The notes under the pieces are model-generated. The model saw only the letters and a program-made list of their open reading frames with translations. It ran no database searches and was not told the DNA's origin. From a virus, in IMG/VR virus record IMGVR_UViG_3300048123_000042, positions 1-21,217 of that record: a stretch of 21,217 nucleotides of DNA; one strand, written 5' to 3'. A program made the translations under genes and the position numbers. How positions within the stretch are numbered: position 1 is the stretch's first letter; each line of letters opens with the position of its first letter. Below, one piece after another: positions 4,512-18,917 of this stretch.

Positions 4512-4539
4512 TATATCGAATTTTAGTTTACTAACCATA

Positions 4540-4830
4540 TTTAGTAGTTTAAGTCGCTCGCCTGGTTGGCTTAGGCTTGACTGCTATTTTTCGTATAACT
4601 ACGGCTTTCAGTCTTACTGTTTGCTTTTAACACTAGCTAGGTTATTTTCCCTACTTTGCCTGTCCAGGCTGGCTCGCAAGCCTACTTCAATACCTATAAA
4701 TTGAAACCAGGGTACATATACATAGGACGTTTATATTATGTTTTAAATGTATCTGGCGTATTTACTTTAAGTTTCTGCTTAAAATTGCTAGTCAAAATGT
4801 TAAAGAGCGTGTCTGCTTACTCGCGACATT
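4540..4830 (-). ncRNA. Structured non-coding leader or RNA downstream of terL
   Basis: This stretch has no convincing ORF on the minus strand (only about 9-codon frames). It is preceded by a promoter-like element (4832-4863). Four inverted repeats lie within 130 bases: 4671-4682 (GGCT stems, UNCG-type loop), 4658-4669 (GCCT/AGGC), 4579-4583 with 4609-4613 enclosing a second hairpin at 4592-4603, and 4560-4563 with 4573-4576. This part looks less AT-rich than its surroundings. I infer a structured RNA or long 5' leader of the 56-residue gene. A DNA role such as a packaging recognition site beside the terminase gene is the main alternative. No known RNA family was recognised. Confidence 0.4.
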
Positions 4831-4831
4831 T

Positions 4832-4863
4832 GCAATATACAACAAAAAAAGTTACCAACCAAA
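4832..4863 (-). promoter_or_regulatory. Bacteroidota-type promoter
   Basis: On the minus strand TTTG (4863-4860) is followed after 20 bases by TATATTGC (4839-4832). This resembles the Bacteroidota primary-sigma consensus TTTG, about 19-21 bases, TAnnTTTG, with the -7 element slightly off. The same two elements recur at 12206-12236 with 19-base spacing. It lies just after the large-terminase stop and would start transcription near 4825. Confidence 0.55.
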
Positions 4864-4874
4864 TGTTTATAAAG

Positions 4875-6047
4875 CTATCTTATTGCGTACCTGGCTACGT
4901 TTGGTCTTGACAGTTTTGTAAAAATACTATAGCGCACCGCGTCAATGCTATGGTCGTTTTTTGGCTCTGGTTTATTTAGTAGCATGCCGTTTTTGTCTTC
5001 GAGCCATTTGTAGTTTCTAAATTCCTGTATTGTGTTTGTGCTACGACTTGTAACAAATATGTTATACCTCTTCATTAAGTCGATGCCCATTAAAATACTG
5101 TCTTTGCCTTTTGTAGACGGTTTGCAATTCCAGCCGTAGCGGTGTAACTCGTCAATACTTTTTGGCTCGCTGTTGTCAGCAAAAATTTCGTCGTTTCGTT
5201 TTAAGCCTAGCTCTAGTAGTTTGTTATGTATGTCGCGGTTTGTCATTCCGTACTGGTAAAACTCTTCGTCTATATATAGGTTGTTGTCTAGTAGGTAGGT
5301 TGCCACCTGACAGCTTGGATCGTTCACAAACCCCCAGTCTAAGCCTCTAGCTACTAGCTTGGCTCTGTCTGGTATTTCGTTACATTCGCTAAACTTAAAA
5401 ACGGTTGCTCGGTTTCGTCCGACTTGCCCTAGACCGTATACGCGCCAGTAGTCCTCGTCGGTTTCTTTTAGACGCTCTATTTCGTCTACTAGGCTTTGCT
5501 CTAAAAATTTATTGTCTTTGTATGTAGTAATGTGAAACGCTGCGTCTTCGCGTGTTTTAATTCTAGTGTATATATAGCTGTACTCGTCGCTAGGGTTGTA
5601 GTCTAAAATTATAGACGGTGCGCCTGGCGTGCCTACTGTCCTAAATAAAACCTGGCTGTAAGAGCTGTAGCTAAATTCGTTTGCCTCGTTTAAAAATGCT
5701 AGGTTTCGTTTCCGACCTTTTAAGCGGCTTGCCTGGTCTATGCTTACAAACTCAAATAGGTTACCGTTTAGTCTGTACTCGCTATTGCTTTTGTTATGGT
5801 GCGCCTCGTTGTATAAGTCGTATTTATTAAGTATGTCGAAAAAGTCTCGCATTACGGTTGCGCGTAAAGCTGGGTAGGTTGCGCGGAAAATAGTTATAGT
5901 CTTGCCTGTATACTTTTGGCAATAGGAAAATATAAGCCAGAGCAAAGTATTGTAGGTTTTGCCAGACCTAGTACCCCCTTGCATTATGACAATTTTTTTG
6001 TCTGTATGCTCTAGGTGTTTCCAAACTACGTTTGTTTCTATTTGCAA
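4875..6047 (-). CDS. terL: Terminase large subunit (packaging ATPase/nuclease)
   Basis: The 390-residue protein powers DNA packaging into proheads and cuts the concatemer. Residues 24-31 are a Walker A (GGTRSGKT), with a Walker B-like LAFLNEANE near 117-124. The RNase H-fold nuclease half shows acidic positions D237 (GLDWGF), D291 (FADNSEP) and D365/D369 (KNDHSIDAVRY). The length is normal for a phage terminase of this class. The start codon is TTG at 6047: an in-frame stop lies at 6083-6081 upstream with no ATG or GTG between, and the next Met is inside the Walker region, so the TTG start is well supported. An AGG lies six bases before it. The Cys-rich gene ends two bases upstream. Confidence 0.95.
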   Translation of the reverse strand: MQIETNVVWKHLEHTDKKIVIMQGGTRSGKTYNTLLWLIFSYCQKYTGKTITIFRATYPALRATVMRDFFDILNKYDLYNEAHHNKSNSEYRLNGNLFEFVSIDQASRLKGRKRNLAFLNEANEFSYSSYSQVLFRTVGTPGAPSIILDYNPSDEYSYIYTRIKTREDAAFHITTYKDNKFLEQSLVDEIERLKETDEDYWRVYGLGQVGRNRATVFKFSECNEIPDRAKLVARGLDWGFVNDPSCQVATYLLDNNLYIDEEFYQYGMTNRDIHNKLLELGLKRNDEIFADNSEPKSIDELHRYGWNCKPSTKGKDSILMGIDLMKRYNIFVTSRSTNTIQEFRNYKWLEDKNGMLLNKPEPKNDHSIDAVRYSIFTKLSRPNVARYAIR

Positions 6048-6048
6048 A

Positions 6049-6219
6049 TTATGCCTCGTTTTTCCAGTAATACTCGCAAGTCATGCCGTCATGCTGTTGG
6101 CTTGCTTTTAGCGGCGGCTCTGTAAAATACGACTGCCTTTCGCCGTCTGGTGCTGTATACCTAAAACAGCTGTCTTTTACTATGCAGCCAGTACCCTGGC
6201 ATTTTGTTATGTCTGCCAT
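6049..6219 (-). CDS. Small Cys-rich protein (56 aa) between terS and terL
   Basis: This frame was read by hand. ATG 6219 shares a base with the stop of the small terminase (TAATG), and TAA ends just before the TTG start of the large terminase. The product begins MADITKCQGTGCIVKDSCFRY and later has MTCEYYWKNEA, giving four Cys residues (CxxxxC, C, C) that could bind a metal ion. I recall similar 50-60-residue proteins next to phage terminase genes in Bacteroidota phages, function unknown. The exact fit into the gap and the overlap pattern make the gene convincing. A role in packaging is suggested by position only. Confidence 0.7.
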   Translation of the reverse strand: MADITKCQGTGCIVKDSCFRYTAPDGERQSYFTEPPLKASQQHDGMTCEYYWKNEA

Positions 6220-6554
6220 TATTCAATTACTTTTACTGTAAATTCTTTTGTGTCTTGCACCTCTAGCTGTTGGCGCTCTACGTAGCCTCGATGTTTTGCC
6301 TTACTCTTTAAATAGAAAATAATGCTAGCGGTGTCTTTGTCCTTTATTTTTTCGTACAATTTGCTTTCGACAAAGTCTATTGCGCTTTCGTGTATGTCTT
6401 GCACGTATGCCTTATACTCTTCGTCCTCTTGTACCCAGCGGTAGTGTGTTGCTCTACTTACGCCAGCGCTTGCGCACGATGTAGAAACGATGCCTAGGTT
6501 GTACTCTAGAGCCTCTAGCATCTTTTTTTTACTGTCTTGTGTGTCTCGTACCAT
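6219..6554 (-). CDS. terS: Terminase small subunit-like DNA-binding protein
   Basis: The 111-residue product has an N-terminal helix-turn-helix around residues 20-42 (IVSTSCASAGVSRATHYRWV), typical of the phage small-terminase/resolvase-like HTH used to recognise the packaging site. The helical C-terminal half contains ESKLYEKIKDKDTASIIFYLKSK, the kind of helix that oligomerises in TerS rings. It lies two genes upstream of the large terminase with one 56-residue protein between. The family call rests on the HTH pattern plus context. A stand-alone transcription factor is less likely. It starts 21 bases after the end of the DnaA-like gene. Confidence 0.8.
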   Translation of the reverse strand: MVRDTQDSKKKMLEALEYNLGIVSTSCASAGVSRATHYRWVQEDEEYKAYVQDIHESAIDFVESKLYEKIKDKDTASIIFYLKSKAKHRGYVERQQLEVQDTKEFTVKVIE

Positions 6555-6574: not shown

Positions 6575-6979
6575 TTAAACTTTGGCTGGCTCTTGTAATA
6601 TGTCTGTCATATACTTACGAAATTTGCGTATTTGTTTTTGGTTTTTAATTTGGCTTATTAGTAAATATGCGTTTTGGTATTGCCTTACTGTTATTTCAGT
6701 CTCTAGTATGTTTTTGTAGTATTCGTTTAAGTCTTTACGCCTGTGCCTTATTTCGTTTTCAAAGTTTTTAACGCTATATATCATTACGTCATGCTTTCGT
6801 TTTTTACCGTTTTTCCTATAATGATCCGTAATACTTTGGTATGTTACTTTGTAGTCTTCGCGCATTATGTATTCAAACAACGCCCTGGCGTCTACTATTG
6901 GTTGCGTTCTACGTTTGCTGTATATGTTTTCGCCTGTATATTTAACTACTAGGTCTGCTATTTTTTTGTGCTGGCTCAT
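6575..6979 (-). CDS. DnaA domain IV-like DNA-binding protein
   Basis: The 134-residue protein resembles the C-terminal DNA-binding domain of DnaA. Residues 26-50 read QPIVDARALFEYIMRED, followed by YQSITDHYRKNGKKRKHDVMIY (about 48-69), which matches the pattern of a helix-turn-helix with the DHxT signature position occupied by HDVM. No AAA+ ATPase domain is present, so it is not a full initiator. It may bind the replication origin or act as a transcription factor. It sits upstream of the terminase genes and downstream of the nuclease genes. The start overlaps the end of the small coiled-coil gene by 38 bases. Assignment is by pattern and is tentative. Confidence 0.55.
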   Translation of the reverse strand: MSQHKKIADLVVKYTGENIYSKRRTQPIVDARALFEYIMREDYKVTYQSITDHYRKNGKKRKHDVMIYSVKNFENEIRHRRKDLNEYYKNILETEITVRQYQNAYLLISQIKNQKQIRKFRKYMTDILQEPAKV

Positions 6980-7094: not shown

Positions 7095-7432
7095 AAGTAT
7101 ATGTCTCTTATTGGTAATTTTATGCCTTTGGACGTGTCGTTGTCGCCGCCTAGTATGTCTCGCTTTGTCTTAAAGTACGGCTTACATAATTTTTTAAGTT
7201 TTGCGGTTTCTATAATTACAAAAGACTTATTTAAAACTATGCAATAGTAGTCGGCTTTGCTGGTGCTTATGCCAGACGGTTTGCCTCGGCTTTCGTACTC
7301 AATAAAAATACTGCTAAATGCGTCCGTACATTTTTTAACCTCAACAGTTTTGTTTTCTAGTATGTCGGCTAGCTCGCGCTCTTTAACTTGCCCTACTTTT
7401 AGATCGTACTCGAAATTGTTACTGTATTCCAT
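7091..7432 (-). CDS. PD-(D/E)XK nuclease-like protein (113 aa)
   Basis: The 113-residue protein has a restriction-endonuclease-like arrangement: VKERELAD (about 16-23, conserved Glu), VEVKK at 30-34 giving the E-x-K half motif, then FIEYESRGKPSGISTSKADYYCIVL (about 43-67). I have seen this motif set in small phage nuclease or resolvase-like proteins. Expected function: a metal-dependent nuclease acting on branched or nicked DNA during replication or recombination. No tight biochemical assignment is possible. The gene follows the RecE-like exonuclease with a TAATG overlap, which fits a shared recombination module. Confidence 0.6.
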   Translation of the reverse strand: MEYSNNFEYDLKVGQVKERELADILENKTVEVKKCTDAFSSIFIEYESRGKPSGISTSKADYYCIVLNKSFVIIETAKLKKLCKPYFKTKRDILGGDNDTSKGIKLPIRDIYL

Positions 7433-8235
7433 TATAGCGTACCCTGTATTGTATAGTCGTTTATGTCAAAGTCTGGACGTATATAAGTCTCATATAGGTT
7501 TAAGCCTTTGCGTAATTCCTGGCGTCCGTATTCTATAAATGCCTCGCTACATTTCCATACGCCAATATCTAGGGTGTTTTTAGAAATGCAAAGAAACGTA
7601 AAGTCTTCATGCGTTAGCGGTTTTTCTGGCGTGCTAAATAGCTCTAAATAAATTGCAGCCTGTAAATGGTATTTGTATTTAAAAGCGGACTTGTCAAAAC
7701 TCTGTACGTCTTGCGTTGTTTTTATGTCAACGATGCCGCCGCTATTTTTTAGTACGTCTGCCTTGCCTCTAAATGGGTAGCCAGTATTTAGGACTTCGCC
7801 TATTGCTGGCACTTCGGTTTTACAGTCGCCTATAAGCTCAACAGCTTTTGGGTTTTTAAAAAAGGCATCTATAAGTCTGTTGTTGTCGTCGCGCTCTTTT
7901 GCTGTAAATACTTCGCCATGCTCGGCAACCGCCTCTTTAAACGCTTTGGCATTTCTACTTTGCACCTCTATAAATTTGACTTGCTCGTATTTTTGTGGCT
8001 CTAGTATTGCTAAATGGAAAAGGTGTCCGCTACGTAAAGCGGCTGTCGTTTCGTTCTGTCCATACTTATTGACATAGTAGTATGTCTTTGGACTGTCTAA
8101 AAGTAATTTAAGGCTAGAGCTACTTAAAGCTAGTTTTGACAGCTCGCCGTAATAAAAACTGTCGTCAGTCATTTTAGCTAGTAGCTGTTGTTTTCCGTAG
8201 ACGTTTCCGTCTAGTAGTGTAATTTGGTCTGTCAT
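7432..8235 (-). CDS. RecE-like PD-(D/E)XK exonuclease (DUF3799 type)
   Basis: The 267-residue product has the order of motifs of the exonuclease VIII C-terminal/PF12684 group: SSSLKLLLDSPKTYYY (38-54), RSGHLFH (68-74), KTEVPAIGEV (139-148, Glu141), RGKADVL (156-162, Asp160), GIVDIKTT (167-174, Asp170 and Lys172) and YHLQAAIY (189-196, Gln192). These give the metal-binding Asp/Glu/Lys and the Gln of the QxxxY motif. Members digest one strand of double-stranded DNA ends for homologous recombination. No RecT-like annealase was identified in the window, so the partner may be the SSB-like or OB-fold-like protein. The gene begins just after a 55-residue small gene and ends in a TAATG overlap. Confidence 0.8.
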   Translation of the reverse strand: MTDQITLLDGNVYGKQQLLAKMTDDSFYYGELSKLALSSSSLKLLLDSPKTYYYVNKYGQNETTAALRSGHLFHLAILEPQKYEQVKFIEVQSRNAKAFKEAVAEHGEVFTAKERDDNNRLIDAFFKNPKAVELIGDCKTEVPAIGEVLNTGYPFRGKADVLKNSGGIVDIKTTQDVQSFDKSAFKYKYHLQAAIYLELFSTPEKPLTHEDFTFLCISKNTLDIGVWKCSEAFIEYGRQELRKGLNLYETYIRPDFDINDYTIQGTL

Positions 8236-9586: not shown

Positions 9587-9740
9587 TACGTCTAAATGTT
9601 AAATTGTCTAGTTTGTCGCGTCGTTTTTCGCAACCGCAAGTCTCAAAACCTAGCCAGTCAATTACTATTTTTTTTACTAGCCACTTGACGCCTGTATACT
9701 TAAATATCGTCTCTAGTATTGTGCCTATTTTTATATTCAT
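9579..9740 (-). CDS. Small CGCEKRRDKL-type protein (53 aa)
   Basis: The frame was read from the sequence. ATG 9740 gives MNIKIGTILETIFKYTGVKW, then an aromatic/basic helix, then a conserved-looking GFETCGCEKRRDKLD motif (about 33-47) with two Cys residues. This motif recurs in small phage proteins from Bacteroidota that accompany CTCNPK proteins like the neighbour. The gene begins inside the sigma-like gene (41-base overlap) and ends 8 bases into the next gene, so it is not fully clean but is supported by the motif. Function unknown. Confidence 0.5.
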   Translation of the reverse strand: MNIKIGTILETIFKYTGVKWLVKKIVIDWLGFETCGCEKRRDKLDNLTFRRND

Positions 9741-10290
9741 TTTTTATCTGTCTTTTAATAGTCTTCAACGTATTGCGTAGCGACCAGTAAGTTATTTTAG
9801 TCTCGCGGCTAAATTTTGCTAGTTTTTTGCCGTCTAGGTATACCTCTTTAAAAATTCTACGTAAATAGTAAAGGTGCATTTTGTCGCTGCTAAACTCTTC
9901 TAAATAAGTCTCGTTTTCTAGCATGTCTAAATACTCTTGTTTTTCGTACCATTGTATAATAGACTTTAATTTTTCGTAAGCGTCTGGCTCTTCTATATAG
10001 TCATTGTCTTGCTGTAAGTCTAGCCGCTCGTTTATTTGTAAGTAGGTTACTTTTTTTTCTTTGCGCTTTAAGTCGTAGACTAAGTTGCGTAGACATATAT
10101 ATATAAAATAGTAATTTATTTCGTTGCCATTAAAATATATGTCAGCGCCTTTTTCCTTTACGTGTTTCTGTACGTTTACATACATTTCGGAAACAACGTC
10201 TTGCGATGTCTCGGCATTGACGCTAAAACTCTGTACAATGTCTAGCCAAATTTTATGACTTTTATAAATTTCTTTTAGTACGCATTTCAT
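9700..10290 (-). CDS. ECF-like/phage sigma-70 family factor
   Basis: The 196-residue product has the two-block layout of a minimal sigma factor. The N-terminal block (about 10-80) contains SQDVVSEMYVNVQKHVKE and later YFIYICLRNLVYDLKRKEKK, as in region 2. A spacer with acidic residues follows, then a C-terminal block (about 145-185) with LAKFSRETKITYWSLRNTLKTIKRQIK, a helix-turn-helix like region 4. Such proteins let a phage redirect host RNA polymerase to late promoters. It lies downstream of the helicase-like ATPase. The family call is by overall pattern, and sequence identity to any characterised sigma factor is likely low. Confidence 0.65.
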   Translation of the reverse strand: MKCVLKEIYKSHKIWLDIVQSFSVNAETSQDVVSEMYVNVQKHVKEKGADIYFNGNEINYYFIYICLRNLVYDLKRKEKKVTYLQINERLDLQQDNDYIEEPDAYEKLKSIIQWYEKQEYLDMLENETYLEEFSSDKMHLYYLRRIFKEVYLDGKKLAKFSRETKITYWSLRNTLKTIKRQIKNEYKNRHNTRDDI

Positions 10291-10324: not shown

Positions 10325-11230
10325 TTAAAAGGGTGCGCGCTCTAGTTTAAGTTTTTTTACTAGACTTTCGTTGTTAATAGAGTACCCTACATTGTTGGTA
10401 ATTGCTTTTAAAATTATGGGGTTGTCTAGGCTGGTGCAACGACCACCAGACGAAATGCTTTTTACTTTTTTTATATGTAGCTGGCTATTCATAAACAAAA
10501 CAGGGTGTTGAATAAAACGATGACAGCAAGCGAAAAAGTCAGAGCGGTTAACGAATTTTCCGCCGCCCTCAATACTCGAACTCTCTGGCACTTTTGGGTA
10601 GCCTTGAAACTCGCCGTCTCTATATACTTGTCGTATTGCCTCGGTGTTTGCATGCGTACATAGCCAGACAGTAACTTTATGTTTTTTACAAAATAGTCTT
10701 ATGTCGGTTGTTGCCTCGTAGTCGTACTCGTGTACGCCCAAACCTTTTAGCATTTCTTTGTCCTTTGCCAAACTATTGTACGGATCAATAAGGAAACCGT
10801 CATACTTAAATATTGTCCTATGGTTTTGCGCCTCTTGTAAAAGCTCTTTGTATGTATATAGTCTAGTATTGTCTATAAATTGAAAATGTTTTTTTATCCA
10901 GTCTATGCCCTGGTTAAAGTCTGTAGGTATTATTTTGTTTATTGGTTGCTCTAGTATAAACTCTAGTAATTTTTGTATAAGCTCAAAAGGCTCGTTTTCG
11001 CTAGAATAAATTAAAAACTTTTGGTCGTGTTTTATAGCGTACAAAAGCATTAAGTAAATAGTAAGGCTTGTTTTACCTACGTTTGCATGCCCTAGCCATA
11101 TTCCAAAGTCTTGCGGTTTCATAACAAAATACTCGTCAATTTCTGGTATGTCTAGCTTTAAGCCTTGCTTTAATTTTCCTGTACGTAGGTTTGATAGTGT
11201 TTGTATTTGGTCGTTGTAGTTTACTAGCAT
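10325..11230 (-). CDS. RecA-fold ATPase, probable DnaB/Twinkle-like replicative helicase
   Basis: The 301-residue protein has a Walker A at 47-55 (GHANVGKTS), a Walker B at about 145-150 (FLIDPY with Asp149), an ENE acidic spot at 78-80 and a THAN sensor-like motif at 192-195, in the order of DnaB/RadA-type RecA-fold ATPases. It lacks the N-terminal primase-binding domain of full-length DnaB, so it resembles compact phage helicases. Expected role: unwinding DNA ahead of the fork. It follows the SSB-like genes but is separated from them by a terminator (11253-11280), and the sigma-like gene follows. A recombination ATPase is the alternative. Confidence 0.72.
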   Translation of the reverse strand: MLVNYNDQIQTLSNLRTGKLKQGLKLDIPEIDEYFVMKPQDFGIWLGHANVGKTSLTIYLMLLYAIKHDQKFLIYSSENEPFELIQKLLEFILEQPINKIIPTDFNQGIDWIKKHFQFIDNTRLYTYKELLQEAQNHRTIFKYDGFLIDPYNSLAKDKEMLKGLGVHEYDYEATTDIRLFCKKHKVTVWLCTHANTEAIRQVYRDGEFQGYPKVPESSSIEGGGKFVNRSDFFACCHRFIQHPVLFMNSQLHIKKVKSISSGGRCTSLDNPIILKAITNNVGYSINNESLVKKLKLERAPF

Positions 11231-11302: not shown

Positions 11303-11632
11303 TTAAAACGGTAGGTCTTCGTCGTTTTTTACTGCCTGTCTGTCTGGCATAAACTCGGACGTTTCCACTTTTTGCTGTTCAGCTTTTAAAGCCTGTTTGT
11401 TTATTTTAGTAAACTTAGCGTACATTTTTGTACGGTCTTTTTGCGCTCTTAAAATATCTATTGACATAAAGCCGTTGTTTTCGTTTATATGCTCTTTATG
11501 TTTTTTTAAAAACTCTACAAACTCGCTGGCTTTTATATGCAGCTTTGCTGTGATCCAGTCGTATTTTGGCTCGTCTCTAACAACGAAACTATTTACAAAC
11601 TCGCTTTGGTATTTACTATTTGTGTTATTCAT
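11303..11632 (-). CDS. SSB-like protein with acidic C-terminal tip (109 aa)
   Basis: The 109-residue product has a charged N-terminal half, a basic middle (ILRAQKDRTKMYAKFTKINKQ) and ends in NDEDLPF. The final DEDLPF is almost identical to the acidic tip (DDDIPF) of bacterial single-stranded DNA-binding proteins, which recruits replication and repair partners. The middle is too divergent for me to see an OB-fold with certainty. I infer a phage SSB or SSB-tip protein that feeds the helicase, NinG and RecE-like proteins. It follows a 126-residue gene by one base and is followed by a terminator. Alternative: a small SSB-partner protein that merely copies the tip. Confidence 0.6.
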   Translation of the reverse strand: MNNTNSKYQSEFVNSFVVRDEPKYDWITAKLHIKASEFVEFLKKHKEHINENNGFMSIDILRAQKDRTKMYAKFTKINKQALKAEQQKVETSEFMPDRQAVKNDEDLPF

Positions 11633-12309: not shown

Positions 12310-12717
12310 CTACATTTTTAGTAGCTCTTCTAGTTTATTGGTATATAATTCGATAAGGTCTTGTAAGTCAGCTACAGTATTTTTTTGCGTCTGTCTACTT
12401 TTTTGTAGTAAAGCGTCGCTTGTACCCTTGCCAAATTGTTTGTCTAGGTTTTTGCCAAACTCAAACTGTCTGCCGTAAAAATGACAATTACAGCTGTAGC
12501 ACTGGGGTTTGACGTTTTGCTCGTCGAAACGCGTAGCTGTATGTTTTCTTGACATAAAATGTCCAGCTTGCATACCGTCTTTTTCCCAGTATTTTTTTAC
12601 GCCGCAAGTGTAACATTTAACGTAACCTTTTTTGTCTGCATTACTAAGGCGTACATATTTACTAAATACAGTGTCTAGTTTCTTTTTTAACTTGCTTACT
12701 GTTGGTTTGGCTGGCAT
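12310..12717 (-). CDS. ninG: NinG/Rap-type Holliday-junction endonuclease
   Basis: The 135-residue protein shows the NinG (lambda Rap) zinc-finger/HNH-like layout: CYTCGV at 35-40, GMQAGHFMSR at 48-57 (with the AGHF motif), TRFDEQNVKPQC at 62-73 and CYSCNCHF at 73-80. Cys35, Cys38, Cys73 and Cys76 form the likely zinc site. NinG proteins cut branched recombination intermediates such as Holliday junctions, helping phage recombination and packaging. The C-terminal helix is Gln/Lys-rich. It follows the 75-residue gene without a gap. Confidence is high for the family, moderate for substrate. Confidence 0.85.
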   Translation of the reverse strand: MPAKPTVSKLKKKLDTVFSKYVRLSNADKKGYVKCYTCGVKKYWEKDGMQAGHFMSRKHTATRFDEQNVKPQCYSCNCHFYGRQFEFGKNLDKQFGKGTSDALLQKSRQTQKNTVADLQDLIELYTNKLEELLKM

Positions 12718-12945
12718 CTAGCATTGTGTAAATAGTAGCTCTTTACCTAGGTTTTCGTCTATGCTTTTTATAGCTCTATAAATAAAACGGCTGTCTTTTT
12801 TTGTACGATCTATTTCTGTTTTTGTACTGTCTATGCCTAAATTAGTGTAAGCTGTAGCGTCAATTTCTAGTAGCGCATCGACCTTTTTTTTGTCCGACCA
12901 GGTTTTATACCCTACAATTTTCAATACTCTGTCTTGTAATTCCAT
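12718..12945 (-). CDS. Conserved small phage protein (75 aa) upstream of ninG
   Basis: The open frame extends to 13008, but the first 21 residues are a Phe-rich stretch from an AT-rich spacer, so I choose ATG 12945 giving MELQDRVLKIVGYKTWSDKK. It continues with a TAYTNLGIDSTKTEIDRTKK segment and SRFIYRAIKSI, a small helical protein that I recall as conserved in flavobacterial phages beside replication genes. Its stop abuts the ninG start. Upstream lies the AT-rich repeat gap, so it is the first gene of the replication block. Function unknown. A role in replication is suggested by position. Confidence 0.55.
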   Translation of the reverse strand: MELQDRVLKIVGYKTWSDKKKVDALLEIDATAYTNLGIDSTKTEIDRTKKDSRFIYRAIKSIDENLGKELLFTQC

Positions 12946-13035
12946 AAGTGTAAATGTAAATATTAAATAATTAAAAAAAAACTCAAAAAAAAATTTGCCG
13001 TTAAGCAAAATATCTATATTTTTTACTACTATATA

Positions 13036-13126
13036 ATAGTATACTAGCTATATACTAGACTACTATATAAATATACTACCATATACTAGTATACTCGTAT
13101 ATACTAGTATAAGCGCTTGTAAGCGC
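13036..13126. repeat. Phased TATACTAG repeat array, candidate origin or operator
   Basis: Exact TATACTAG copies start at 13040, 13051, 13082 and 13100. One-mismatch copies start at 13072 (TATACTAC) and 13090 (TATACTCG). Successive distances are 11, 21, 10, 8 and 10 bases, close to whole DNA turns. Two 12-base palindromes (TATACTAGTATA, 13082 and 13100) and a TAGTATACTA palindrome at 13037-13046 overlap the copies. An AAGCGC direct repeat follows at 13111-13126. There is no gene from 12946 to 13132. This looks like iterons or an operator array between the lysis and replication blocks. No binding protein is identified. Confidence 0.55.
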
Positions 13127-13132
13127 ATTAAA

Positions 13133-13528
13133 TTACTTTTTGGTGCTAGCGTATTCCTTAGCTATTTTTTCGCCTGTACGCCCTATAACATAGCCGCCTA
13201 TGCCTATTTGTAGTAAATTCCAAAACTCGTTCTCTAACTCTGGTATTTTAAAGTCAAATAATGGTGCTATAAACTTTACATAAATGACTATAAACCCAAA
13301 CGCTAGCATTAAGATAGGACGCCAGCTGCGTTGTAGCCAGTTTCCGTTTGCCTCGGCTACTATAATTTCTGTTTGTAAGCGTTGCAATTCTAGCTGTTGC
13401 TCTTTTAAAACTTTTAGCATTTCGTTTTTAGCTTGCATGCGCTCTTCGTCGCTAGTAAATAAGTTGTCTATAACTTTGTTTATTTCGCCTATTACGCCTG
13501 TAGAAAACCAGTTTATTATTTTTTTCAT
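13133..13528 (-). CDS. GTA-type holin-like membrane protein (131 aa)
   Basis: The 131-residue product has an amphipathic N-terminal half with a coiled-coil stretch (about 28-60, including EERMQAKNEMLKVLKEQQLE). It then has a WLQRSWRPILMLAFG motif leading into a transmembrane helix (about 71-91) and a second hydrophobic segment (about 103-116, with GIGGYVIGRTGEK). This matches the GTA-holin 3TM-like family found in phages, which forms holes in the inner membrane so that the endolysin reaches the wall. It is the last gene of the lysis block and overlaps the preceding 51-residue gene by four bases. Two clear hydrophobic segments rather than three are visible. Confidence 0.65.
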   Translation of the reverse strand: MKKIINWFSTGVIGEINKVIDNLFTSDEERMQAKNEMLKVLKEQQLELQRLQTEIIVAEANGNWLQRSWRPILMLAFGFIVIYVKFIAPLFDFKIPELENEFWNLLQIGIGGYVIGRTGEKIAKEYASTKK

Positions 13529-13680
13529 ATTGCGGTGTTTGCCCAGCGAAATTTTAGTTGTATAAAAAGTAAATATAAATTAACCTCGCTGTAATTATTT
13601 TCTACGTCTCTAGGGTAATACGCCCAGCCTAGGATCATTCCTGTAGGTATTAAAGACATTATGCTAAATTGGTATGCCAT
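13525..13680 (-). CDS. Small hydrophobic protein in lysis block (51 aa)
   Basis: ATG 13680 shares a base with the amidase stop and the stop overlaps the holin-like start (ATGA). The product begins MAYQFSIMSLIPTGMILGWA, an N-terminal hydrophobic segment (about 4-21), followed by YYPRDVENNYSEVNLYLLFIQLKFRW. I recall this motif from small flavobacterial phage proteins near lysis genes. It may be a short membrane protein such as a spanin or holin regulator, but it could also be soluble with an amphipathic start. The exact fit between two overlaps makes the gene convincing. Confidence 0.6.
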   Translation of the reverse strand: MAYQFSIMSLIPTGMILGWAYYPRDVENNYSEVNLYLLFIQLKFRWANTAI

Positions 13681-14102
13681 TAAAAACGGTAACTTATATT
13701 TTCGTATTCAGTTTTTGCGTCAAAACTAGGACAGGCTTTTTCGCTAAAGTCTCTATGTCCGTAAACTGTACCGCCGTAACAGTCATGCAGCTGGCATAGT
13801 AAGTCTACAAAACTGTCTTTTTGTTCGTCTGTACGCGTGTCTTTTGGCTCTGTCATATCTTTTGACATTCCGCCAGCGTAAGCAATTCCGATGCTGTCCC
13901 AATTATGCCCTCGCGTATGCGCGCCTGTCATTTCTATAGGTCTACCCTCTTCGACTGTACCGTCTAAACGTATTAAAAAATGATAGCCTACGTCGCGCCA
14001 GCCTCGCTCTTTTACGTGCCAGCGTCTTACTTCGTCAATACTTACGTCTCTACCCTCTGGCGTAGCCGTACAATGAATAATTATTTTATTGACTTTGCGC
14101 AT
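13680..14102 (-). CDS. N-acetylmuramoyl-L-alanine amidase (endolysin)
   Basis: The 140-residue protein has the T7-lysozyme/amidase_2 layout: IIIHCTATP at 7-15 (zinc ligand His10), GYHFLIRLDG at 39-48, GAHTRGHNWDSIGIAYAGG at 60-78, YGHRDF at 114-119 (His116) and KACPSFD at 122-128 (Cys124). The zinc triad His10, His116, Cys124 is complete, so the enzyme is predicted active on the peptidoglycan amide bond. It has no signal peptide, consistent with holin-dependent release through the neighbouring holin-like gene. Length is normal for a single-domain endolysin without a wall-binding domain. Confidence 0.93.
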   Translation of the reverse strand: MRKVNKIIIHCTATPEGRDVSIDEVRRWHVKERGWRDVGYHFLIRLDGTVEEGRPIEMTGAHTRGHNWDSIGIAYAGGMSKDMTEPKDTRTDEQKDSFVDLLCQLHDCYGGTVYGHRDFSEKACPSFDAKTEYENISYRF

Positions 14103-14873: not shown

Positions 14874-17800
14874 TTAAGAATTTGTTTCGTATGTAAATTG
14901 CAACAACAAACGGTTTGAGCCACTTCCACTTTTTAAGCCATTTGTAGGAAATTGCGAACTTGAATTATCCGATGTAAAGTAAATATAATTGCTATTAATT
15001 ATAGGCGAATAATTACCTAAACTTACTTGAAACGAATAGTTATAGCCTTTTGAGCCGCCAGTTGACTGCGACGCATTAAAAGGCAACCCTTGTATTCTCA
15101 AACTACCACCAGCATAATTTAAAGCGCTTGTACCTAAGGAAATAGATAAGTGTACTATTCTGCCTATTTTTACATATTTGCCTACTTGTATATCGTGCGT
15201 TACTGAAATACCGCTACTACCTTGATAATAAGGTGTAAAAGTACCCTCTTCGTAGTCGTCTAATTCATTTGCCGTACTATTTGCACCTATTCTAATTGCA
15301 TCATTAAAAAATGCGCTTGTACTTTGTAAAGTTAATATGGGCGACGTAGACTGTGAACCTCTTCTAAATTCTAAATTGCTAGAGCTATTTAACTGCACCG
15401 ACGCTTGGTCACCACTCATTACTGTACCAAAACTTAACTTAGATCGCGTGCCGCTAAAATTGTTGTTTCTTATTTCAATTTCTGCGTTTTGGTAATTTAC
15501 ATTTAATTTTCCTGTCATTGTACCGCCAGAAATAGGCACAAAATTACCTCCACCGCTACCGTTAGACGCTGCCGTAATTCTGCCTTGCGCATCTACTGTT
15601 ATGTCTGCCGTAGTATAGCTGCCAGCTGTTACTGCTGTGTTAGCTAAACTTAAAGTAGCATTACCAGACGTTGCACCGCCGCTTAAACCTGTGCTAGCTG
15701 TTACGCCTGTAATATCGCCATTTCCTGTGCCAGCGCCGATTAAACTACGCATTTCGCTAGCCGAAATACCAGTGTTTAAACTTGGTGTGCTACCGTTAGA
15801 CAAAACAGCTGGCGTGCCTGTGTCTGGCGCTGTGTTTGTAATTGTAATTGTACCACCGCTTGACGTAGACGTCATTTCAGACTGTATGCCTGTACCCTGT
15901 GCTATTGTTAAAGTTTCTCCGTTTGTTACCGACGTGCTTTCAGTACCGTTACCCTCTTTAATAGTCCATGAAGACATACTACCGCTACCGTTACCAGTAC
16001 CAGCGCCGATTAACGTTCTAACTTCTGCGGCTGTAATACCACTATTTAAGCTTGGTGTTGAGCCATTAGACGTTATTGCTGGCGTGCCTGTGTCCGATAC
16101 CTTAGCATTGTTAGCTAGTATGTTGTTAGCTTGCGTTGTTGTAATACCTACCTTGCCATTGTTTGTTGCTATATTGTTTGCCTGTGCCGTAGTTATAGTT
16201 GTAGTGTTACCAGCTAGAGCTGTGCTAGAGGTTGTACCTAGTTGTAGTAAGGCGGTATTTCCAGCTAGGGCTGTCCCAGACGTCGTACCTAAAACCATAC
16301 TTACTTTTGCATTATTAGCGGTTATGTCGCTAGCTTGTTGGCTTGTAATTCCTGTCTTAGCTGTATTAGCCGATACAGCCGAATTTGCGGCTACTCTAGC
16401 GTTAGTAAAATATAGGTTACTTGATCCCTCGGAAATATCGTCGCTATCTAAAACAACCGTACCAGTTTGAGTGTTTACACTATCTACAGCGCCGCCGCCT
16501 GTTACTTGCGCCCAACCTTGGTTTTTACGCGCGTATTGGTTGCCGTCATTCGGCGCCTCTGGAAACGAAACCTTAGCGGTATTGTTAGTTATAGCTGTAG
16601 CTTGACTATTTGTAATACCGACCTTAGCATTGTTAGACGTTATGTCGCTAGCCTGTTGCGTGCTTATTCCTACTTTGGCGTTGTTAGCTACAATGTCGTC
16701 TGCCTGTGAAGTAGTTATGCCTACTTTCGCGTTGTTTGCTGTTATGTCGCTAGCCTGTTGCGTAGTAATACCTACTTTTGCTGTGTTGGCGGTTATCGCA
16801 TTAGTTTGTGCTGTTGTAATTCCTGTCTTAGCATTATTTGCTGTAATGTCGTCTGCCTGTGTTTGGGTTATACCAGTTTTAGCTGTGTTAGCTGCCACAG
16901 TTGAATTTGCACTTACTCTAGCGTCTGTATAATATAAATTACTAGTACCCTCTGAAATGTCGTCTGTATCTAAAACTACAACGCCTGTATCGCCATTAAC
17001 ACTGTCAACAGCGCCAGAGCCACTGCCAGCGCCTATGTTTGCAAGTATAGCGGTTTTGTCATTTGTAGAAATACTAGTTGCCGCGACTAAACCAGCCGTA
17101 ACGTTGTCAGCGTCCGTTACGTCTGCATTTTGTTCTATAGTAGCAAGTTTATTTTCGTCTACCGTTGGGTAACTTCTTTTAGCTGTATTTAAAGCTATTG
17201 CTGTTGCATTTGTTGTAATGTCAGCAACGTTGCCAGAAATGTCGCTTGCGTTTTGTGTAATACTAGACGTGTTTGCTGCTATGCTGTTTTCTGCCGCTGT
17301 TATGTCTGTTTCATTTGTTGAAACCCTACCGTCTAGCGCTGTGATGTCAGTATCGTTGCTACTTATATTCGTAGCGTTTGTAGCAATATTTGTTACGTTT
17401 GTAGCAATACCAGACGCATTTGTTGCTATATTGCCTGTATTAGTACCTATGTTTGTAGTATTTGTCGAAATTCCGCTAGCATTACTATTTATATTTCCTG
17501 TATTAGTAGATATATTAGACGTGTTAGTTGAAATATTAGACGCATTTGTAGTTATGTTTGATCCGTTGCTTGAAATTGCCGACGTATTTGTAGATATATT
17601 CCCAGCGTTTGTAGAAATACCAGACGTATTAGTAGCAATTTGACTAGTGTTGCTTGCAATATCGCCCTCGGCTGTAGAAATATCATTTGTATTAGCTAAA
17701 ATATTATTTGCGTTCGTTGTAATATTTGTTGTATTGCCAGAAATATTTGTAGCATTTGTAGAAATATTACTAGTATTTGTAGCTATTGCACTTGTATTAG

Positions 17801-18917
17801 CCGTAATGTTTGATGTATTTGCGGCTATGTCCGTATCATTACTAGCTATGTTTGCAGCGTTTGTTGTTGCTTGCGCGGTGTTTGTAGCTATGTTTGATGC
17901 GTTAGTAGAAATATTACCAGTATTAGCCGAAATACTACTTGTATTGTTTGATATATTCGTGTTGTTTGTCGAAATATTACTAGTGTTTGTAGAAATAGCG
18001 CTTGTGTTGTTTGCTATGTCGGTGTCGTTGCTAGAAATATTTGTAGAATTTGTTGCAATATTAGACGCGTTACTAGCAATATTACTAGTGTTTGCAACAA
18101 CGTCAGCGTCAATACTAGAAATTTCAGATGTATTAGCCGCAATATTACTTGTATTTGTTGCTACAGATGTTTGTAAATTTGAAATGTCAGTATCGTTACT
18201 TGAAATGTTAGCCGCGTTAGTTGTTATGTTATTTGCGTTAGTTTGTATGTTTGTAACGTTAGTTGCTATTCCGCTAGTATTGCTACTTATATTGGTGGTG
18301 TTAGTAGCTATGTTTGTAGCGTTTGTCGAAATATCTGTATCGTTGCTAGATATATTAGTAGCATTTGTTGCAATATCTGTAGCGTTAGTAGAAATGTCAG
18401 ACGTGTTTGTTTGTATGTCAGTAACGTTAGTCGCTATGTCTGTCGTATTAGTGTTTATAGCCGTTTGTAGCGTACTTCCGTCAATATCTAGCGTATTATC
18501 TAACGCGGTTGTAGTTATGCCGTTAGAGCCTGTTATTTCAAATGTTTCGCTATCTAGGTCAACGTCGCCTATGCCGCCATTACCGCTAAAGTCTAAGTCG
18601 GCGGCTGTCAATGTTTGATCCACGTAATTTTTTACAGCGGCGCTCGTTGGTAGGCTTGTGTCGTTGTCGTTGTTTTCTATGCCGTCTGCCTCGTCTACAA
18701 ATTTGTCTACTGTAATATTTTCGCCAGCGTCTTTAAGGCTGCCAAACTCTACGGTATTATTTACTTTTAAGTTTCCGCTGTTGTCTAATAGTACGCCAGA
18801 ATTATTGCCGTCGCCGTCAGTTATAGCCTTAGGCGTTGCCGATAGTGTACTTTCGTCAGATGTTTTTAGTAAACCTTTGTAGGTTGAGCTAATTTGTTTG
18901 TTTGTTAATGTACTCAT
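14874..18917 (-). CDS. Long tail fibre / receptor-binding protein (1347 aa)
   Basis: The product starts MSTLTNKQISSTYKGLLKTS, with an N-terminal attachment region to about residue 150. Residues of about 150-578 are a regular heptad stalk of the type N-T-S-N-I-S-T, here some 60 repeats, which fits a trimeric coiled fibre. Then come two copies of a VDSVN-TG-VVLD-DDISEG-SNLY module (about 636 and 810) linked by AKVGIT-Q-QASDITANN repeats. Two copies of a DTGTPA-SNGSTPSLN module follow. A C-terminal domain begins with DYEEGTFTP (about 1217) and supplies the probable receptor-binding tip. No intramolecular chaperone cleavage motif (S74 type) was seen. Confidence 0.88.
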   Translation of the reverse strand: MSTLTNKQISSTYKGLLKTSDESTLSATPKAITDGDGNNSGVLLDNSGNLKVNNTVEFGSLKDAGENITVDKFVDEADGIENNDNDTSLPTSAAVKNYVDQTLTAADLDFSGNGGIGDVDLDSETFEITGSNGITTTALDNTLDIDGSTLQTAINTNTTDIATNVTDIQTNTSDISTNATDIATNATNISSNDTDISTNATNIATNTTNISSNTSGIATNVTNIQTNANNITTNAANISSNDTDISNLQTSVATNTSNIAANTSEISSIDADVVANTSNIASNASNIATNSTNISSNDTDIANNTSAISTNTSNISTNNTNISNNTSSISANTGNISTNASNIATNTAQATTNAANIASNDTDIAANTSNITANTSAIATNTSNISTNATNISGNTTNITTNANNILANTNDISTAEGDIASNTSQIATNTSGISTNAGNISTNTSAISSNGSNITTNASNISTNTSNISTNTGNINSNASGISTNTTNIGTNTGNIATNASGIATNVTNIATNATNISSNDTDITALDGRVSTNETDITAAENSIAANTSSITQNASDISGNVADITTNATAIALNTAKRSYPTVDENKLATIEQNADVTDADNVTAGLVAATSISTNDKTAILANIGAGSGSGAVDSVNGDTGVVVLDTDDISEGTSNLYYTDARVSANSTVAANTAKTGITQTQADDITANNAKTGITTAQTNAITANTAKVGITTQQASDITANNAKVGITTSQADDIVANNAKVGISTQQASDITSNNAKVGITNSQATAITNNTAKVSFPEAPNDGNQYARKNQGWAQVTGGGAVDSVNTQTGTVVLDSDDISEGSSNLYFTNARVAANSAVSANTAKTGITSQQASDITANNAKVSMVLGTTSGTALAGNTALLQLGTTSSTALAGNTTTITTAQANNIATNNGKVGITTTQANNILANNAKVSDTGTPAITSNGSTPSLNSGITAAEVRTLIGAGTGNGSGSMSSWTIKEGNGTESTSVTNGETLTIAQGTGIQSEMTSTSSGGTITITNTAPDTGTPAVLSNGSTPSLNTGISASEMRSLIGAGTGNGDITGVTASTGLSGGATSGNATLSLANTAVTAGSYTTADITVDAQGRITAASNGSGGGNFVPISGGTMTGKLNVNYQNAEIEIRNNNFSGTRSKLSFGTVMSGDQASVQLNSSSNLEFRRGSQSTSPILTLQSTSAFFNDAIRIGANSTANELDDYEEGTFTPYYQGSSGISVTHDIQVGKYVKIGRIVHLSISLGTSALNYAGGSLRIQGLPFNASQSTGGSKGYNYSFQVSLGNYSPIINSNYIYFTSDNSSSQFPTNGLKSGSGSNRLLLQFTYETNS
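17185..18470 (-). repeat. Heptad-repeat coding tract of the fibre stalk
   Basis: The DNA encodes about 60 tandem seven-residue units with repeated codons for Asn, Thr, Ser and Ile. The unit varies slightly, so the DNA repeats are imperfect 21-base units. The antisense strand stays open across this tract because of the same codon bias, producing long plus-strand frames (323 and 141 residues) that are not genes. The tract is a likely site of length change by unequal recombination. Confidence 0.8.

What the first reader, a model, noticed from the sequence alone, without database searches (positions are those of the whole stretch)
13036..13126. Helically phased TATACTAG array between lysis and replication genes
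Seen: six TATACTAG or one-mismatch copies at 13040, 13051, 13072, 13082, 13090 and 13100, spaced 11, 21, 10, 8 and 10 bases, with overlapping palindromes and an AAGCGC direct repeat after. The spacing near one helical turn suggests cooperative protein binding on one DNA face. Inference: replication origin iterons or an operator, possibly bound by the DnaA-IV-like protein encoded at 6575-6979.
Basis: partly seen in the sequence, partly recalled or inferred. Interest (0 to 1): 0.65.

Follow-up and report, generated by a model that had tools for sequence, protein, structure and literature searches.

The report
Conserved phage repeat array, probable origin
A stretch of about 90 bases packed with copies of a short TATACTAG-like word sits just before the DNA-replication genes of a family of uncultivated marine phages; it is conserved and is most likely where their DNA copying starts, or the switch beside it, an ordinary kind of element although its sequence is new.

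Summary
The repeats are real: six exact TATACTAG words (both strands) in 89 bp, against 0.8 expected in shuffles. They persist in every relative that has the same neighbouring genes. The gap is 90-92% identical where fourfold sites of adjacent genes are 62-64% identical. Copy number and spacing change, and distant relatives have a different word at the same place. The array stays with the replication operon when the lysis cassette is swapped. In five complete 27-31 kb genomes it is the most repeat-dense 150-bp window and lies at or next to the least stable one, just upstream of NinG, OB-fold/SSB-like and DnaB-like helicase genes. Best reading: an initiator-binding iteron array plus unwinding region (phage origin), probably doubling as the early-operon control region (0.5). 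The 'AAGCGC direct repeat' is a covarying stem-loop after the holin. The 6575-6979 protein is a stand-alone DnaA domain IV by fold, but related phages without this array carry it too, no DnaA boxes occur near the array, and nothing ties it to these repeats. Binding and origin activity are untested.

The parts
13024..13112 (-). Repeat array (89 bp): CTAGTATA / TATATAGTAG / TATACTAGTATA units; on the gene-sense (-) strand TAGTA outnumbers TACTA about 5:1 across relatives
13113..13126 (-). Stem-loop GCGCTTACAAGCGC just after the holin stop; stem sequence covaries among relatives; terminator-like end of the lysis genes (belongs to the holin side, not to the array)
   Evidence: absent in the lineage with another lysis cassette
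13004..13026 (-). Conserved A/T-rich flank TAGTAAAAAATATAGATATTTTGC at the 3' (operon) end of the array; candidate unwinding region together with the array
12985..13009 (-). TTTGCTTAACGGCAAA followed by nine T: weak terminator-like hairpin, present only in part of the relatives
   Evidence: the generic terminator scan did not flag it
12951..12958 (-). TACATTTA: TAnnTTTG-like -7 promoter box 5 nt before the ATG of the first early gene; TAnnTTT(A/G) in 14 of 16 relatives
   Evidence: consensus TAnnTTTG in PMC9723704
12718..12945 (-). 75-aa four-helix protein, first gene after the array; missing in several relatives that keep the array
12310..12717 (-). NinG/Rap-type junction endonuclease, start of the conserved replication/recombination operon
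10325..11230 (-). DnaB-like helicase in the operon downstream of the array
6575..6979 (-). Stand-alone DnaA domain IV protein, candidate (unproven) binder
13133..13528 (-). Holin (GTA_holin_3TM), end of the lysis genes upstream of the array

Best explanation
The array is a cis-acting, initiator-binding iteron array that with its A/T-rich flank forms the replication origin (or its core) of a family of 27-35 kb marine, probably flavobacterial, phages. A phage protein, possibly the stand-alone DnaA domain IV or another early product, would bind the TAGTATA-type units, melt this least stable stretch of the genome and let the phage DnaB-like helicase load. The same region probably helps time the early operon, whose likely start (a TAnnTTTG-like box) lies 70-90 bp downstream. 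Shown: presence, conservation, uniqueness, position and low stability. Inferred: protein binding, melting, origin activity and the identity of the binder.
For: Conserved at the same place in all close relatives. The gap is 92% and 90% identical where fourfold-degenerate sites of flanking genes are 64% and 62%. In five circular genomes the array gap is the most repeat-dense 150-bp window, and the least stable window is this gap or overlaps its edge. Nearly all genes of the circles lie on one strand and the array sits between lysis genes and the NinG / OB-fold / SSB-tailed / helicase operon. It stays with the replication operon when the lysis cassette and its stem-loop are replaced and when the first gene is missing. 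Copy number varies while both ends are conserved. Distant relatives carry a different but also palindromic word at the same place, as expected for a coevolving initiator/iteron pair. The architecture (repeats plus AT-rich tract at replication genes) is like the lambda origin (PMC7466680).
Against: No replication data exist. GC skew shows no switch at the array, although one-strand coding makes that test weak. No initiator is identified: the DnaA-IV protein family also occurs in phages without the array, and canonical DnaA boxes are absent. An operator/promoter region would share position, conservation and much of the low stability.
Confidence: 0.5

Rival explanations
1. The array is a multi-site operator/activator region for the early operon: a phage regulator binds the repeated palindromes and represses or activates the promoter just downstream; it has no role in replication initiation.
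For: The array is directly upstream of the first early gene. A TAnnTTT(A/G) box is found 12-14 nt before its start in most relatives, 14 of 16 against 2.7 in shuffles. Palindromic units are typical of dimeric regulators. In L068 the array runs to about 12 nt before the NinG start. A distant sigma-70-like protein is encoded in the operon.
Against: The array spans 60-110 bp with strongly variable copy number and in most relatives ends 70-90 bp above the promoter-like box. No repressor-like gene was recognised by Pfam or PHROGs, though many small genes are unknown. It is the least stable, most repeat-dense site of each genome, more than an operator needs.
Confidence: 0.28
2. The array acts as RNA: the lysis transcript runs through it and the self-complementary repeats form a long hairpin in the 3' UTR or early leader (terminator, stability element or attenuator).
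For: The sense strand folds better than shuffles (z about -2 to -5 in many relatives) and better than the antisense strand. Real stem-loops flank it.
Against: The predicted fold differs between relatives. Natural variants keep folding energy equally well on the antisense strand, as expected of DNA-level dyad repeats. The covarying stem-loop is a separate element that follows the holin.
Confidence: 0.1
3. Partition/centromere-like site or packaging (pac/cos) site.
For: Tandem palindromic repeats occur in parS and some pac sites (general knowledge).
Against: No ParA/ParB was recognised among the window proteins scanned. Terminase genes are 6-7 kb away.
Confidence: 0.05

Closest known systems
Lambdoid phage origin (O-binding iterons plus AT-rich tract)
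   Same: Several short, roughly 18-bp repeats in direct orientation beside an easily melted AT-rich tract, at the replication genes; iteron number varies between phages (4 in lambda, 6 in Stx phages; PMC7466680)
   Different: Lies between genes, not inside an initiator gene; repeat sequence unrelated; no O or P homologue recognised; units irregularly spaced (8/10/18) and the array itself is the low-stability region; initiator unknown
Bacterial oriC basal unwinding system (DnaA boxes plus DnaA-trios, 3'-GAT-5')
   Same: TAG-rich strand ending TAG-TAG-TAA in most relatives; phage encodes a DnaA domain IV
   Different: No DnaA box adjacent; the phage protein lacks the AAA+ domain that binds trios; TAG runs are at most two or three long
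Multi-site phage operators upstream of early promoters
   Same: Position before the early operon, palindromic units, nearby promoter-like box
   Different: No known repressor; array longer and variable in copy number

Membership tests
Iteron-type phage replication origin | Several specific repeats clustered at one place in the genome, beyond chance and conserved | tested here: met
Iteron-type phage replication origin | Adjacent AT-rich, low-stability unwinding region | tested here: met
   Least stable 150-bp window is the array gap in G004, G005, G006 and G027 and overlaps its edge in G013
Iteron-type phage replication origin | Linked to replication genes | tested here: met
Iteron-type phage replication origin | Identified initiator protein that binds the repeats | tested here: inconclusive
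   DnaA-IV candidate only; its family also occurs without the array
Iteron-type phage replication origin | Replication starts there | not testable with these tools
   No read depth; GC skew uninformative
DnaA-dependent origin (oriC/BUS type) | DnaA boxes (TTATNCACA) next to the unwinding element | tested here: not met
   No cluster in four circles or the window, none beside the array
DnaA-dependent origin (oriC/BUS type) | Run of at least three DnaA-trios placed by a box | tested here: inconclusive
   TAGTAGTAA ends the array but no box positions it; consensus from PMC8287927
Helically phased cooperative operator array | Spacing at multiples of about 10.5 bp, kept in relatives | tested here: not met
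   Lags 8, 10, 18, 26, 28 dominate; mean cos 0.25 at 10.5 bp versus 0.44 at 9 bp
DnaA domain IV (6575-6979 protein) | DnaA-IV fold with the H of the DHTTV signature | tested here: met
   Bac_DnaA_C below Pfam's cut-off but matched by 9 of 13 members; PDB profile hits to DnaA; Foldseek 1j1v TM 0.79, 2.1 A; invariant H63

The most novel reading that the evidence does not exclude
A widespread group of Bacteroidetes phages starts replication with a stand-alone DnaA domain IV that has left DnaA boxes behind and recognises strand-biased TAG/TATACTAG iterons, an origin in which DnaA's DNA-binding domain works without its AAA+ motor.
Probability: 0.15. Interest if true: 0.65.

Novelty: new member of a known kind. 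Interest (0 to 1): 0.36.

Why it matters
It pinpoints a conserved, testable candidate origin/early control region in an uncultivated marine phage lineage, and sets out a clean question: whether the small DnaA-domain-IV proteins common in these phages are initiators for non-DnaA-box iterons.

Tried and rejected
Helical phasing: rejected as a family property. AAGCGC as direct-repeat iterons: rejected, it is a covarying stem-loop that goes with the holin. Conserved RNA structure of the array: folds differ between relatives and antisense behaves the same in the substitution test. DnaA boxes or a BUS-type unwinding element: no adjacent box. GC skew as origin evidence: no switch, uninformative because nearly all genes are on one strand. 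Co-occurrence of the DnaA-IV protein with the array: not specific. 75-aa protein as obligatory partner: missing in relatives that keep the array, and present in many phages without it; its four-helix model has no informative PDB match. Named phages: no nucleotide relative and none with the 75-aa or DnaA-IV protein. An exact array pattern scan of viral contigs returned nothing because the pattern was too strict. Rfam: nothing at gathering score. Papers on origins in phages of this group: none found in the library.

Full report
WHAT WAS CHECKED. Counting both strands, six exact TATACTAG words lie within 89 bp (13024-13112), against a mean of 0.84 in dinucleotide shuffles of the array itself and none of 1000 shuffles reaching six. 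Tandem Repeats Finder independently reports overlapping arrays of period 8, 10, 16, 18 and 34 at 13024-13111. Two details are not: helical phasing, and the AAGCGC direct repeat.

CONTEXT. The window is a 21,217-bp virus record whose recognisable genes all lie on the minus strand. Profile searches recognise a holin (13133-13528), amidase (13680-14102), NinG-type junction endonuclease (12310-12717), DnaB-like helicase (10325-11230), exonuclease VIII-like protein (7432-8235) and small terminase subunit (6219-6554). The large terminase is 4875-6047. The 109-aa product at 11303-11632 ends in DEDLPF, like the tip of single-strand-binding proteins (sequence, inference). No named phage matches at nucleotide level; the terminase is closest to Flavobacterium phages at under 40% identity. 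Four relatives are closed circles of 27-31 kb, judged from 91-127-base terminal overlaps, and a fifth shows a 123-base overlap. Nearly all ORFs in the four mapped circles are on one strand, and the array gap lies between the end of the lysis genes and the first replication/recombination gene.

CONSERVATION. The same gap with the same kind of array is found in every close relative fetched. Against two relatives the gap is 92% and 90% identical, while fourfold-degenerate sites of six flanking genes are 64% and 62% identical; it is therefore held by selection. The two ends of the array are conserved (start TTATACTAGTATAT, end TATATAGTAGTA followed by an A tract) while the interior gains and loses units; one relative holds three 18-bp tandem units. 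Across 15 relatives TAGTA occurs 138 times on the gene-sense strand against 28 for its complement, and TATAGTAG 44 against 2: the units are mostly direct repeats that also contain palindromes.

SPACING. Autocorrelation over the relatives peaks at lags 8, 10, 18, 26 and 28, with 18 strongest, and is negative at 9, 11 and 17. Coherence of successive unit spacings is 0.25 at 10.5 bp and 0.44 at 9 bp, and the phasing of the six window sites at 10.5 bp is matched by 8.8% of random spacings. A one-face, one-turn arrangement is not a property of the family.

SURROUNDINGS. Right after the holin stop a stem-loop (GCGCTTACAAGCGC here) is kept with different stems (GAGCTT/AAGCTC, GGCTT/AAGCC, GCCC/GGGC, AAGGCC/GGCCTT, AAACGT/ACGTTT and others). 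This is compensatory change and marks an RNA stem-loop, most simply the end of the lysis transcript. It disappears in a lineage with another lysis cassette, whereas the array remains before the 75-aa gene and the replication operon. Downstream of the array is a conserved A/T-rich flank, in some relatives a hairpin with nine T, and a TAnnTTT(A/G) box at a near-fixed distance before the first early gene in most relatives (14 of 16 against 2.7 in shuffles). TAnnTTTG is the flavobacterial sigma-A -7 consensus (PMC9723704).

GENOME-SCALE PROPERTIES. In all five closed circles the array is the most repeat-dense 150-bp window. The least stable 150-bp window by nearest-neighbour energy is the array gap itself in four (G004, G005, G006, G027) and starts 38 bases before it in G013. 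These properties, with the position upstream of the helicase operon, are what an iteron-type origin shows. GC skew gives no switch there, but with nearly all genes on one strand that test has little power.

DISTANT RELATIVES. Genomes whose helicase is about 50% identical carry, at the same junction, arrays of a different palindromic word (for example GTACAATAGTACTATTGTAC, TATACTATTGTATA). A 35-kb lineage with helicase 60% identical has ATAGACTAGTAT units. Position and character persist while the word drifts, as expected for sites coevolving with their binding protein.

CANDIDATE BINDER. The 6575-6979 product is a stand-alone DnaA domain IV. A profile of the family hits solved bacterial DnaA chains at E 1e-5 to 8e-4; the AlphaFold model (mean pLDDT 86.8) matches 1j1v, DnaA domain IV bound to a DnaA box, at 2.1 A with target TM 0.79; the signature histidine is invariant. 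But 39 of 50 examined contigs of related phages encode the family, many of them without an array of this kind, DnaA boxes do not cluster in these genomes or near the array, and in the window the gene sits next to the terminase. It is a candidate, not an identified initiator. The 75-aa protein is absent from several relatives that keep the array and is common in phages without it.

ALTERNATIVES. A multi-site operator for the early promoter explains position and conservation almost as well and is the main rival (0.28). An RNA role is less likely: the sense strand folds well, but the fold is not the same in relatives and the antisense strand does as well in the substitution test. Partition or packaging roles lack supporting genes or position.

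VERDICT. A real, conserved, functional DNA element, most likely an iteron-type origin or combined origin/early control region of an uncultivated phage family. It is a new member of a known kind. Protein binding, melting, origin activity and the identity of the initiator are inferred, not shown.

Noticed in passing
4539-4874 (-): About 336 non-coding bases between the large terminase and a 65-aa ORF; similar gaps of 278-292 bases in two circular relatives. Folds slightly better than shuffles (z -1.7); only a weak, implausible Rfam hit. Possibly a phage non-coding RNA.
   Followed up: partly
9700-10290 (-): 196-aa protein that looks like a very divergent ECF-type sigma factor: Sigma70_r2 E 0.067 here, Sigma70_r4_2 E 0.004 and 0.008 in relatives.
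   Followed up: partly
6575-6979 (-): Stand-alone DnaA domain IV proteins are widespread in related phages (39 of 50 contigs), also in ones without this array; I found no study of their function.
   Followed up: partly
14874-18917 (-): 1347-aa fibre-like protein with a very long run of NTS/ISSN-type repeats; the gene at the same place in circular relatives is much shorter (505-703 aa).
   Followed up: no
L198, L199, L202, L205, L212: In the lineage with another lysis cassette the 44-aa gene just before the array has two AGACTAG words 18 bp apart inside its codons, so the array may reach into coding sequence.
   Followed up: no
12718-12945 (-): 75-aa all-helical protein family conserved directly upstream of NinG in many phages, no database family.
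   Followed up: partly
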